A DNA stretch of 64,000 nucleotides from Psychrobacter lutiphocae DSM 21542 (GTDB lineage Bacteria; Pseudomonadota; Gammaproteobacteria; Pseudomonadales; Moraxellaceae), in NCBI RefSeq assembly GCF_000382145.1, contig NZ_KB907635.1, positions 1-64,000 on the forward strand, given 5' to 3'. The notes under the pieces are model-generated. The model was given only the letters and a program-made list of their open reading frames with translations, did not search any database and was not told the DNA's origin. Positions 18,057 to 51,680 of this stretch are shown one piece after another. Each line of letters opens with the position of its first letter. The stretch's first letter is position 1. The position numbers and the translations under genes are program-made.

Positions 18057-18307
18057 TTGATAGTCAATCAGGCACAAAAATTGGTAGGCTTTAAACTATC
18101 ACAAACGCCGGCGCTGATAAAGGGGTGATTAGATACCGTTAACTGTTTCGCTACTTGAGTTTGATTTGGTGTTTGGCGTAGGGTAGGGTTAGTGAGCATA
18201 AAGGCTCGCAGAGCACTTTACGCGAGCGTAACCCACCGTACCAATTTTTGGTTTGGGGTAGCCATCCACACCCAAAACATATTGGAGCCAATACCGCCAT
18301 CCGCTCA
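18057..18307. other. Upstream of aat, no gene seen
   Basis: About 250 bp before the structured hairpin element. It contains a GCGAGCGTAACCCACC stretch, resembling short motifs near 48.7 and 50.2 kb, but I could not define a repeat boundary. Confidence 0.35.
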
Positions 18308-18412
18308 TATCTTGATCACCCACTGGCGCAGTGACTATTGGCTAGGTGCGTTCCAACATACGAGCGACCACTCCTAGCCAAGTCACTGCAAGCCAGTGGT
18401 CGTCCAAGGATA
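18308..18412. ncRNA. Structured interrupted-hairpin element, copy A
   Basis: Nested arms: TATCTTG (18308-18314) with CAAGGATA; CCACTGGC (18320-18327) with GCCAGTGG (18392-18399); GCAGTGACT (18328-18336) with AGTCACTGC (18381-18389); GGCTAGG (18340-18346) with CCTAGCC (18373-18379). An AA bulge (18390-18391) sits on the 3' side. Copy B at 48501-48603 has the same architecture with compensated changes. About 38 further bases downstream are also related. RNA versus DNA function is unknown. Confidence 0.55.
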
Positions 18413-18470
18413 CCCGCTACTGTCGGGGCTACACCGCATCCCAAGGCCACATTCAAGGCGTGAAAAACAA

Positions 18471-48460: not shown

Positions 48461-48500
48461 AACATAAACATACCAAGGAGTCAACCCTGCTTTTCGCTGC

Positions 48501-48603
48501 TATCTTGGTACACACAGGCGCAGGCACTAAGGCCAGAGGCGTTCCTGACCCAGCGATACCACCTCTAGCCAAGCGCCTGCAAGCCTGTGCTTAACCAAGT
48601 ATA
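48501..48603. ncRNA. Structured interrupted-hairpin element, copy B
   Basis: TATCTTGG (48501-48508) with CCAAGTATA; CACAGGC (48513-48519) with GCCTGTG (48583-48589); GCAGGCACT (48520-48528) with AGCGCCTGC (48572-48580, one A-C mismatch); GGCCAGAGG (48531-48539) with CCTCTAGCC (48562-48570, one mismatch). The AA bulge of copy A is present at 48581-48582. The next ~39 bases, ending AAGGCCAC, also match copy A's flank. Confidence 0.55.
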
Positions 48604-48824
48604 TCCGCTTCAATCAGGACTAAAAAGCCTTATTAAGGCCACCCACACCCACTTACTTACCCCAACAAACGTAAACCAACCAGATAAAGTCAGCGAAGTT
48701 AGCGAAGCGTGAGTCACCCATGTATAATAACTACAACTAATTTTAATTTAATCGTGGCAGATCACGTTTTTAATACTATCTTCAAGCGCAATAAAAAACG
48801 AACACCACCCTGCGCCAGATAGCC

Positions 48825-48904
48825 ACTCTCAACCTAACAAATCAACTCTCAACCTAATAAATCAACTCTCAACCTAATAAATCAACTCTCAACCTAATAA
48901 AAAG
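48825..48904. repeat. Four 20-bp tandem repeats in the iscX leader
   Basis: Units ACTCTCAACCTAATAAATCA (the first with C for T at position 14, the last diverging at its end) run right up to the iscX ribosome site. CTCTCAAC resembles the ends of the 119-bp repeat family. Confidence 0.9.
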
Positions 48905-49313: not shown

Positions 49314-49398
49314 TGGTGGGGATGGAGAGACTCGAACTCTCACACCTCTCGGCGCCAGAACCTAAATCTGGTGCGTCTACCAATTCCGCCACATCCCC
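49314..49398 (-). tRNA. tRNA-Leu(UAG), copy 1
   Basis: 85 nt including encoded CCA. Acceptor GGGGATG pairs with CATCCCC. Anticodon arm CCAGA-TTTAGGT-TCTGG gives UAG, reading CUN. Long variable arm and GTTCGAGTC T-loop as in class II tRNA. Confidence 0.96.
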
Positions 49399-49823: not shown

Positions 49824-49908
49824 TGGTGGGGATGGAGAGACTCGAACTCTCACACCTCTCGGCGCCAGAACCTAAATCTGGTGCGTCTACCAATTCCGCC
49901 ACATCCCC
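49824..49908 (-). tRNA. tRNA-Leu(UAG), copy 2
   Basis: Identical to copy 1, 510 bases away. The leader, promoter and much of the 3' flank are also duplicated, so the unit that was copied spans about 200 bp. Confidence 0.96.
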
Positions 49909-50458: not shown

Positions 50459-51592
50459 TTATCGTGACTGTAATAGCTGATACAGATCATTCCACACCGC
50501 ATCCATACACTGATAGCGATTTGATATCTGCTTTGCCAATAATTTGTCGATGATGGTTTGTAATGCTGGATACTGTTCTTGCAACTGTGCCGAAAGCAAA
50601 GGCACCGGCTGCTGGCAATGTAGCTGTGCCCAGCCCTGCAAATCATCTAGGTTATCGAGTATAAACGGTCTTTTTCCCATCACTATCTCATATAGAGTAA
50701 TACCAAACGCATAAATGTCACTTTGCTGATTTTTTAGTTGACCTTGCCAGCATTCAGGCGCGAGATAAGCGGGTGTGCCTGACAGCAAAGTGGTGGTTAA
50801 TGCGACATTATCGCCAGGTTGAAGTGCGCAGGATAAGTCGCTAAGATATGTTGTAATTTTACTGTCTGTGCGAGACAACAAAAAATTGCTCGGTTTAATA
50901 TCGCCATGTATCCAGCCCAAGCCATGTAGCTGTTTCAAGCTACTTGCCATCGCTTGCGCTAGGTCAAGCTTGTGGCATATGTTTAGGCTTTGGTTATCGC
51001 CATCGTTTCTGGCTAAATAATCTTTAATACTAGCTTCAAACAAATAAGGCATGATAAAGCCAACACATTGCCATTTTTGGTCGCTGTCAGTGATTGTGAT
51101 TATCTCATCGTAACAAGCTATAACTGGAACTGTTGGTGGGATAGGTGAGGCTGATTCTGTAATGTGCTGTTGAATAAGCTGCAAATTTTTAATTTCATGA
51201 CATAAGCTAAAATGCTGGTGCTGGTGCTGGTGCTGGTGCTGGCTTTGTGGTTTGTAGGGTGATAGTTGCCATTTATAAATACAGTAAGGACTAACGTGGG
51301 ACTTTGCAGGTAGGCTGGAAGGTAGGTCAGAGGCTATGCTATCTGGGATAGACTGTGTCAGTAGAGTTAAGCCTTGATAATAGGCAGTGCCTGATAATTG
51401 ATCTGACTGATAGTCTGCACTTAGGTTGTGGCTAGTATGACTATGCTGGCTAACAGCACGATACTGGCTAAGGCGTAGATGCTTGTTGACTTGATAGTTG
51501 TGCTTGGCCAAATGCCGAGTCAGCAGGGCGAGCAGGGAGCGCTGTTTCTGGCTGAAGCGGATTGAATGAAGATCATCAGGCTTATTTATCAT
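50459..51592 (-). CDS. Atypical Ser/Thr protein kinase
   Basis: A 377-residue Hanks-type kinase without membrane or sensor domains. The catalytic loop is HGDIKPSN (His229, Asp231, Lys233, Asn236), with HGD in place of HRD, as in RD-minus kinases. The metal Asp is Asp252 in SDLS, in place of DFG. GTPAYLAPE and DIYAFGITLYEIVMGKRP are standard. Lys107 and Glu133 may be the ATP Lys and helix-C Glu; the Gly-rich loop is not evident. Between them is an HQ repeat (118-127) from a 6-bp DNA repeat. The ~90 N-terminal residues are unrecognised. The ATG sits at the edge of a 7-bp array and has no ribosome site. It lies downstream of ntrC on the same strand. Confidence 0.82.
   Translation of the reverse strand: MINKPDDLHSIRFSQKQRSLLALLTRHLAKHNYQVNKHLRLSQYRAVSQHSHTSHNLSADYQSDQLSGTAYYQGLTLLTQSIPDSIASDLPSSLPAKSHVSPYCIYKWQLSPYKPQSQHQHQHQHQHFSLCHEIKNLQLIQQHITESASPIPPTVPVIACYDEIITITDSDQKWQCVGFIMPYLFEASIKDYLARNDGDNQSLNICHKLDLAQAMASSLKQLHGLGWIHGDIKPSNFLLSRTDSKITTYLSDLSCALQPGDNVALTTTLLSGTPAYLAPECWQGQLKNQQSDIYAFGITLYEIVMGKRPFILDNLDDLQGWAQLHCQQPVPLLSAQLQEQYPALQTIIDKLLAKQISNRYQCMDAVWNDLYQLLQSR
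51210..51242. repeat. In-frame 6-bp repeat in kinase gene
   Basis: TGCTGG/TGCTGG units (five or so) encode HQHQHQHQHQ on the minus strand. Confidence 0.85.
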
Positions 51593-51593
51593 C

Positions 51594-51680
51594 TATTATC
51601 TATTATCTATTATCTATTATCTATTATCTATTATCTATTATCTATTATCTATTATCTATTATCTATTATCTATTATCTAT
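51594..51680. repeat. Heptanucleotide array, about 12 units, between ntrC and kinase
   Basis: TATTATC is repeated without error about 12.4 times. It starts two bases before the kinase ATG (minus strand) and runs through the ntrC stop codon into its last codons. All frames contain stops, so it is not coding for the kinase. Confidence 0.95.

What the first reader, a model, noticed from the sequence alone, without database searches (positions are those of the whole stretch)
18308..18412. Two-copy interrupted hairpin with compensated base changes
Elements at 18308-18412 and 48501-48603 share a nested four-arm hairpin, an AA bulge in the same place and ~38 related bases downstream. Arms differ in sequence but stay paired: CCACTGGC/GCCAGTGG against CACAGGC/GCCTGTG, and GCAGTG/CACTGC against GCAGGC/GCCTGC. 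At least three paired positions changed on both sides, the usual sign of a selected structure. It matches no RNA family I know. Both copies lie directly beside other mobile repeats, so it may be a mobile structured unit, a processed small RNA, or a single-strand recombination substrate.
Basis: partly seen in the sequence, partly recalled or inferred. Interest (0 to 1): 0.75.

Follow-up and report, generated by a model that had tools for sequence, protein, structure and literature searches.

The report
Dispersed Flavo-1-type hairpin repeat in Psychrobacter
The two hairpins are copies of a roughly 155-base repeat found about fifty times in this Psychrobacter-type genome; it shares its core with Flavo-1, a catalogued RNA motif of unknown function reported from Bacteroidetes, and it looks more like a mobile piece of DNA than a regulatory RNA.

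Summary
Both hairpins exist as described, fold far better than shuffles, and show compensated changes. The element is larger than reported: 18284-18438 and 48477-48629, plus a degenerate tail. It is a family: 53 strong copies in this genome, and at least one in 93 of 100 genomes of the genus. In 28 aligned copies 28 of 39 pairs changed on both sides (0 of 500 shuffles). It does match a known Rfam family, RF01705 (Flavo-1; reported from Bacteroidetes, function unknown), on the minus strand. The two window copies lie below Rfam's cut-off (31.6 and 39.8 bits against 42), but 13 of 20 own-genome copies tested and 16 of 20 top copies of other species pass it. Copies 88-99% alike have both flanks at background similarity in 35 of 41 pairs, and an orthologous site after metH is occupied in 7 of 30 loci examined. 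I read it as a non-autonomous mobile hairpin element whose mobilising enzyme is unknown. RAYT transposases were tested and are not supported; a function as RNA is not excluded.

The parts
18284..18438 (+). Copy 1 of the element as modelled by R1 (starts GGAGCC, ends GGGGCTACACCGCA). Rfam Flavo-1 matches it on the minus strand (18434-18286).
   Evidence: G000:C14:18284-18438, 159 bits; RF01705, 31.6 bits, E 5.8e-5, below cut-off
48477..48629 (+). Copy 2 of the element. Flavo-1 on the minus strand (48625-48479).
   Evidence: 150.8 bits; RF01705, 39.8 bits, E 2.9e-7, below cut-off
18320..18399 (.). Apical hairpin of copy 1 with AA bulge at 18390-18391; the variable but mostly paired part
48513..48589 (.). 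Apical hairpin of copy 2 with AA bulge at 48581-48582
18301..18305 (+). First CCGCT (AGCGG on the minus strand) of the conserved internal loop, copy 1
   Evidence: alignment A2 and the Flavo-1 consensus
18414..18418 (+). Second CCGCT of the internal loop, opposite the first
18439..18460 (+). Degenerate 3' tail (consensus by eye CCYYMARKYCACAYTCA) seen after many copies; its exact end is not settled

Best explanation
The two hairpins are copies of one dispersed, mostly intergenic repeat family of Psychrobacter that is homologous to Rfam's Flavo-1. Shown: about 155 nt; conserved outer ends with two facing AGCGG motifs (minus strand) in an internal loop; a long apical hairpin whose sequence drifts while its pairing stays; similar copies at unrelated sites. 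Inferred: it is a non-autonomous mobile DNA element. The conserved ends and loop would be what a trans-acting enzyme recognises on a folded single strand (the wobble pattern points to the minus strand), the apical hairpin would matter only as a rod that must stay paired, and copies would settle preferably just downstream of stop codons. The enzyme is not identified.
For: Homology to Flavo-1: full-length matches on the strand opposite to R1 in 20 of 20 own loci tested, 13 over the gathering score, and in 19 of 20 loci of other species, 16 over it (these were the best R1 copy of their genomes), with the same core pairs; 20 of these over-threshold loci were given to Rfam's default search and all 20 were found. 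Structure: 92.9% of cells paired against 76.7% in shuffles, 28 of 39 pairs with changes on both sides, 0 of 500 shuffles. Stems diverge almost as fast as unpaired positions (0.24 against 0.27 among own copies 70-80% alike). Spread: 53 copies; of 41 own pairs 88-99% alike, 35 have both flanks within the 99th percentile of background, 6 exceed it on one flank, none on both; 93 of 100 genomes of the genus, up to 30 copies in another species. After metH, 7 of 30 loci examined carry a copy, the query among them. Between the last aligned bases of the aat-trxB region the best-matching relative has 184 nt where this genome has 559, and no BLAST match to the element. No ORF of 80 aa or more over either window copy; no sigma-70-like promoter or terminator at copy 1. 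The left end follows a co-directional gene in 91 of 128 cases, p = 2e-6. Mismatches that are G-U on the minus strand: 36 against 12 and 66 against 18, after thinning and leaving out one pair. In F. psychrophilum Flavo-1 hits lay in sense or antisense indifferently and many outside the transcript regions studied (PMC9723704, passage), which suits DNA better than a small RNA.
Against: No clean empty site was obtained, so the ends and any target duplication are unknown. No enzyme is linked to it: no RAYT-type gene was found in this draft genome, and the RAYT loci printed carry other hairpins. No replication-strand bias: 36 against 28, p = 0.38, assuming that contigs start at the origin. The most alike pairs (96-99%) often share one flank, so some spread could be recombination between neighbouring repeats. 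8 of 48 own and 2 of 80 other copies overlap a frame of 90 aa or more. The co-directional bias, the minus-strand wobble bias and the fact that several structured 5' transcript regions of F. psychrophilum coincide with Flavo-1 hits would also fit a transcribed element.
Confidence: 0.55

Rival explanations
1. A functional RNA: Flavo-1 is a structured RNA (minus strand), or a 3'-UTR element, that binds a protein through the two-fold symmetric AGCGG internal loop; the copies are regulated genes or decoys.
For: Covariation; wobble asymmetry for the strand that Rfam uses; conserved non-helical motifs AGCGG, GAUUG, UAGCC; bias to lie downstream of genes and not between divergent ones, 12 of 119; several structured 5' regions of F. 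psychrophilum coincide with hits (PMC9723704, passage).
Against: Few wobble pairs overall (66 of 1,884 cells in the thinned other-species set would be G-U on the minus strand; that this is low for an RNA is general knowledge, not a call); no promoter-like site at copy 1; the co-directional strand is the plus strand, opposite to Rfam's; in F. psychrophilum hits ignore transcript strand; copy number ranges from none found (7 of 100 genomes, strict filters) to 53.
Confidence: 0.25
2. A REP-type element mobilised by a RAYT (TnpA-REP) tyrosine transposase.
For: 43 of 53 own copies start GGAG or GTAG; 8 of 55 RAYT-type loci carry a copy where about 0.4 would be expected, or about 0.7 with the higher copy number of RAYT-bearing genomes; copies are commoner in genomes with a RAYT, p = 9e-5.
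Against: All 16 RAYT loci printed (of 55, one subfamily) have a GTTGG-type REP, some of them variants, right after the gene, and L172, L203 and L216 lie by yet other REPs (by eye). This genome, with most copies, shows no RAYT-type gene (draft assembly). The element is about 155 nt and not 21-65 nt. The excess may only reflect repeat-rich spacers, and two of the eight loci share one inherited insertion. The control, 0 of 28 IS200-type loci, covered only 85 kb with about 0.1 copies expected and says little.
Confidence: 0.08
3. The compensated changes are largely mutational: template switching in a quasi-palindrome, or swapping of whole hairpin modules, copies a change from one arm to the other, so pairing proves no selection.
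For: Double changes with few wobble intermediates; among own copies 93-97% alike 16 double against 27 single differences, 1.3 doubles expected.
Against: In other species the same class shows 3 double against 26 single differences, 0.6 expected; both AGCGG motifs and loops stay conserved while helices change; broken pairs persist at some positions; the wobble asymmetry is not predicted.
Confidence: 0.12

Closest known systems
Flavo-1 RNA (Rfam RF01705; Weinberg et al. 2010, PMC2864571)
   Same: Whole consensus 1-76 aligned, the same strand in every match seen, same core pairs and the same AGCGG, GAUUG and UAGCC motifs.
   Different: 79-85 nt of apical hairpin where the Rfam model has 9-13 positions (L187, L105); an extra outer pair run AGCC/GGCT; found here in Psychrobacter, while Table 1 of the 2010 paper gives Bacteroidetes (passage). 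Whether Rfam's own full listing already holds Psychrobacter could not be checked.
REP / BIME with RAYT (TnpA-REP) genes
   Same: Mostly intergenic, many copies, folded single strand, 5' G[GT]AG in 43 of 53, REPs nearby.
   Different: Much longer, not the hairpin next to the local RAYTs examined, no RAYT found in this genome.
Bacterial MITEs, e.g. MITEAba12 of Moraxellaceae (PMC6382973, abstract and section list only)
   Same: Short, no gene, dispersed.
   Different: No terminal inverted repeat of an IS or target duplication recognised here; internal structure kept by covariation. Sequences were not compared.
Integron attC sites
   Same: Folded single strand with extrahelical bases (recalled).
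   Different: Considered from memory and not tested.

Membership tests
Flavo-1 (RF01705) | Score at or above Rfam's gathering score, 42 bits | tested here: inconclusive
   Window copies 31.6 and 39.8: not met. Sister copies: met in 13 of 20 own loci, in 16 of 20 other-species loci, and in 3 of 7 loci (56.2, 48.0, 42.3; three below, one no match).
Flavo-1 (RF01705) | Conserved core sequence and nested core helices of the consensus | tested here: met
   Alignments over 1-76 with 0-6 marks of non-standard pairing in L100, L187, L101, L105.
Flavo-1 (RF01705) | Is an RNA (expressed) | not testable with these tools
   No RNA-seq; one published data set found hits regardless of transcript strand (PMC9723704, passage).
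REP mobilised by RAYT | 21-65 nt hairpin with GTAG or GTGG guide 0-2 nt 5' of the foot (PMC6006769, passages) | tested here: not met
   146-216 nt; 15 of 53 own copies begin GTAG, 28 GGAG, 10 other.
REP mobilised by RAYT | The hairpin flanks the RAYT gene | tested here: not met
   Copy within about 3 kb in 8 of 55 loci; the adjacent hairpin in the loci printed is a different REP.
MITE | Terminal inverted repeats of a resident IS plus target duplication | tested here: inconclusive
   Ends aligned, no duplication recognised by eye; no search against IS ends was made.

The most novel reading that the evidence does not exclude
Flavo-1 is not a small RNA but a mobile DNA family whose folded single strand is the substrate of a so far unknown trans-acting enzyme; the apical hairpin is a free-drifting rod and the two facing AGCGG motifs are the binding site. 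It is shared by Bacteroidota and, within the Pseudomonadota sampled under strict filters, Psychrobacter alone, which would point to transfer between phyla.
Probability: 0.3. Interest if true: 0.7.

Novelty: new member of a known kind. Interest (0 to 1): 0.4.

Why it matters
Flavo-1 has been a computationally predicted RNA without a function since 2010. Psychrobacter offers a setting outside Bacteroidetes, with genomes from no copy found to 53 copies, so the question whether Flavo-1 is an RNA or a mobile DNA hairpin becomes testable by comparing strains and transcripts.

Tried and rejected
RAYT as mobiliser: 55 RAYT-type loci examined, not supported. Replication-strand bias: none in 12 genomes, from a hit list cut short by the tool and partly rounded genome lengths. 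Local GC skew: negative in 37 of 48 own copies (p = 2e-4) but in 35 of 80 others (p = 0.68), so not used. Plasmids and phages: copy 1 in plasmids, copy 2 in phages, no match; a third copy in plasmids, one chance hit; the Flavo-1 consensus, two chance hits in plasmids and none in phages. Viral contigs: end patterns gave 0, 0 and 2 stretches, the two rejected; the right-arm pattern gave one, without an R1 match. Genome contigs: 8 stretches with the right-arm pattern, of which R1 confirms the three from a Psychrobacter MAG and none of the other five. An autonomous version with a gene between the halves: none by regular expressions in the loci then held. Outside the genus: R1 in 2 of 398 Pseudomonadota genomes, both of this genus; RF01705 in 0 of 398, a search that also missed this genome, and in 4 of 57 relatives, 2 over the cut-off. 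Bacteroidota genomes were not sampled. Clean empty site: not obtained.

Withdrawn on checking: an earlier idea that Rfam's default filters miss the Psychrobacter copies. Given 20 loci that score above the cut-off, the default search found all 20; only the genome-wide search used here lost them. This lowered novelty from 'new variant' to 'new member' and interest from 0.45 to 0.4.

Rows dropped or chosen: one search used 48 of 53 own copies (second copies in a locus left out) and 80 of 83 others (a duplicate place, a second copy in a locus and an orthologue left out). A4 counts one place twice (L106 and L299). Searches took 20 loci each, picked by me from those held; one search took 20 of the 29 loci already known to pass. 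The 30 loci after metH are the best matches of 104 genomes; of the 23 without an R1 match at least L318, L323 and L328 show by eye what look like stubs of the element. The wobble count leaves out pair 4 of helix 1, which favours the plus strand (15 and 27 cells); with it the totals are 27 against 36 and 45 against 66.

Full report
What is there. Both hairpins are in the sequence as described and fold much better than shuffled sequence (z -7.90 and -6.35). Aligning the two regions shows homology beyond the reported ends. The covariance model R1, built from 28 own copies, places the elements at 18284-18438 and 48477-48629. No ORF of 80 aa or more covers either.

Copy 1 lies between a leucyl/phenylalanyl-tRNA-protein transferase gene (called aat here) and a thioredoxin-reductase-like gene (PF07992; the name trxB is inferred). 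Copy 2 lies between a thioesterase-like gene and a gene with the IscX-type Fe-S assembly domain PF04384.

It is a family. In the own genome R1 finds 56 matches at E <= 1, of which 53 have E < 1e-9 and span the whole model. In the genus, 93 of 100 genomes have at least one at E <= 0.001 (at most 30 candidates scored per genome, strict filters). The genus is taken as Psychrobacter by inference: genome G021, reported as the same genus, has a contig of 216,386 bases, as has JAGLBE010000001.1, 'Psychrobacter sp.'. In a sample of 398 Pseudomonadota genomes from 212 genera only this genus rang (2 genomes), under filters that lose weak matches.

Structure. On 28 copies, 39 pairs in five helices: 92.9% of cells paired (shuffles 76.7%), 28 pairs with changes on both sides (17.0), covariation score 0.428 (0.160); 0 of 500 shuffles reach any of these. 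Sliding the partners by 1-3 columns drops pairing to 27-40%. Two pairs across the lower internal loop switch between C-G and U-A, and between A-U and U-A, in 12 of 28 copies with none broken. Stems diverge nearly as fast as unpaired positions, so pairing is kept more than sequence. Double differences exceed independence even among copies 93-97% alike: own genome 16 against 1.3 expected (27 single), other species 3 against 0.6 (26 single). This could also arise by template switching or module exchange, so covariation by itself does not prove selection.

Known family. Over the whole window Rfam's default search reports two tRNAs only. In permissive mode both window copies match RF01705, Flavo-1, over its full length on the minus strand, at 31.6 and 39.8 bits (cut-off 42). 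Of 20 further own-genome loci all match and 13 pass the cut-off. Of 20 loci of other species, each the best R1 copy of its genome, 19 match and 16 pass. Given 20 of these 29 passing loci, Rfam's default search finds all 20, so Rfam's own listing may already hold Psychrobacter; this could not be checked. The alignment shows the same core, with the long apical hairpin as an insertion.

Literature. Weinberg et al. 2010 list Flavo-1 under Bacteroidetes, marked y for RNA and n for cis-regulatory (PMC2864571, table passage). In F. psychrophilum several structured 5' regions coincide with Flavo-1 hits, but hits lie in sense or antisense indifferently and many outside, and the authors drew no function (PMC9723704, passage). 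A review tabulates it without function (PMC9029176, passages). Full-text searches for 'Flavo-1 RNA', 'Flavo-1' with 'motif' and 'Bacteroidetes', 'Flavo-1' with 'Rfam', and 'RF01705' listed 0, 2, 3 and 4 papers; by title and abstract none is about Psychrobacter or mobility. Two wider searches on REPs, MITEs and Psychrobacter were seen as listings, with passages of PMC3733652, PMC6006769 and PMC12306157 and the outline of PMC6382973. The library lacks most subscription papers.

Mobility. Of 41 pairs of own copies 88-99% alike, 35 have both flanks within the 99th percentile of background (1,184 background pairs), 6 exceed it on one flank and none on both. The most alike pair with both flanks at background is 98.0% alike; the 99.3% pair shares one flank. 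Part of the shared flank is neighbouring REP-like sequence. The left end is sharp (G[GT]AG in 43 of 53); the right end trails into a degenerate tail. After metH, 7 of 30 loci examined hold an R1 match, the query included, and 23 do not; one of the 7 has a replaced centre (43 bits), and at least three of the 23 show stubs by eye. No exact empty site was recovered. Elements lie after a co-directional gene in 91 of 128 cases and rarely between divergent genes, 12 of 119.

RNA or DNA. Leaving out one outer pair, mismatches that would be G-U on the minus strand outnumber those on the plus strand 36 to 12 in 30 thinned own copies (sign test by column p = 0.13) and 66 to 18 in 49 thinned others (p = 0.006); with that pair included the excess shrinks to 36 against 27 and 66 against 45. 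So the minus strand is probably the one that folds, as RNA or as single-stranded DNA. The low share of wobble pairs, the indifference to transcript strand reported for Flavobacterium, the absence of promoter-like or terminator-like sites at copy 1 and the variation in copy number favour DNA. This is inference.

Mobiliser. RAYT transposases were the first candidate. R1 finds a copy in 8 of 55 RAYT-type loci, about 0.4 expected; 0 of 28 IS200-type loci is too small a control to matter. But all 16 RAYT loci printed have another REP right after the gene, three further ones lie by other REPs, and this draft genome, with most copies, shows no RAYT-type gene. No strand bias relative to contig halves was seen (36 against 28). 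The enzyme remains unknown.

Verdict. Real, structured and mobile-looking, but the core belongs to a catalogued family. What this adds is a description of its expansion in a gammaproteobacterial genus, the long covarying apical hairpin, and a case for a mobile DNA element instead of a small RNA.

Noticed in passing
L256, L265, L266, L268 (own genome) and L216 (G099), near the 3' arm: In these copies a hairpin module of about 75 nt (own genome: like AGAAAATCSCCTTTAAGGSGATTTTCTCTTGCG...) sits in the 3' side of the internal loop, as if a second repeat had inserted at that spot.
   Followed up: partly
G000 C45:18904/19353, C1:192970/193363, C11:73571/73982: Three pairs of elements in inverted orientation, with roughly 240-300 bp of REP-like and other repeats between them.
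   Followed up: partly
L097 220-1387 (G000:C19): A copy lies just beyond the end of a CRISPR array (CRISPR-DR4, 28-nt repeats every 60 bp).
   Followed up: no
L251 477-578 (G000:C40): A copy lies next to a tmRNA match that stays below the cut-off (33.6 bits).
   Followed up: no
L310-L339, downstream of metH: The spot after metH varies between Psychrobacter species: an element, a methyltransferase-like gene (named by eye from its sequence, L315), or a 485-aa protein without Pfam or PADLOC match (L132).
   Followed up: partly
window 49314-49398 and 49824-49908: Two tRNA-Leu genes on the minus strand with equal scores, about 510 bp apart, with a 16-bp tandem repeat between them.
   Followed up: no
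window 48825-48901 and 51582-51680: Tandem repeats: 20 bp x 3.8 just upstream of the IscX-type gene, and 7 bp x 14 around the junction of two ORFs.
   Followed up: no
RAYT loci such as L196, L198, L199: The 16 Psychrobacter RAYT loci printed carry a REP right after the gene, typically GTTGGGTGTCGCAAGCTCCACCCAACCTAC.
   Followed up: partly
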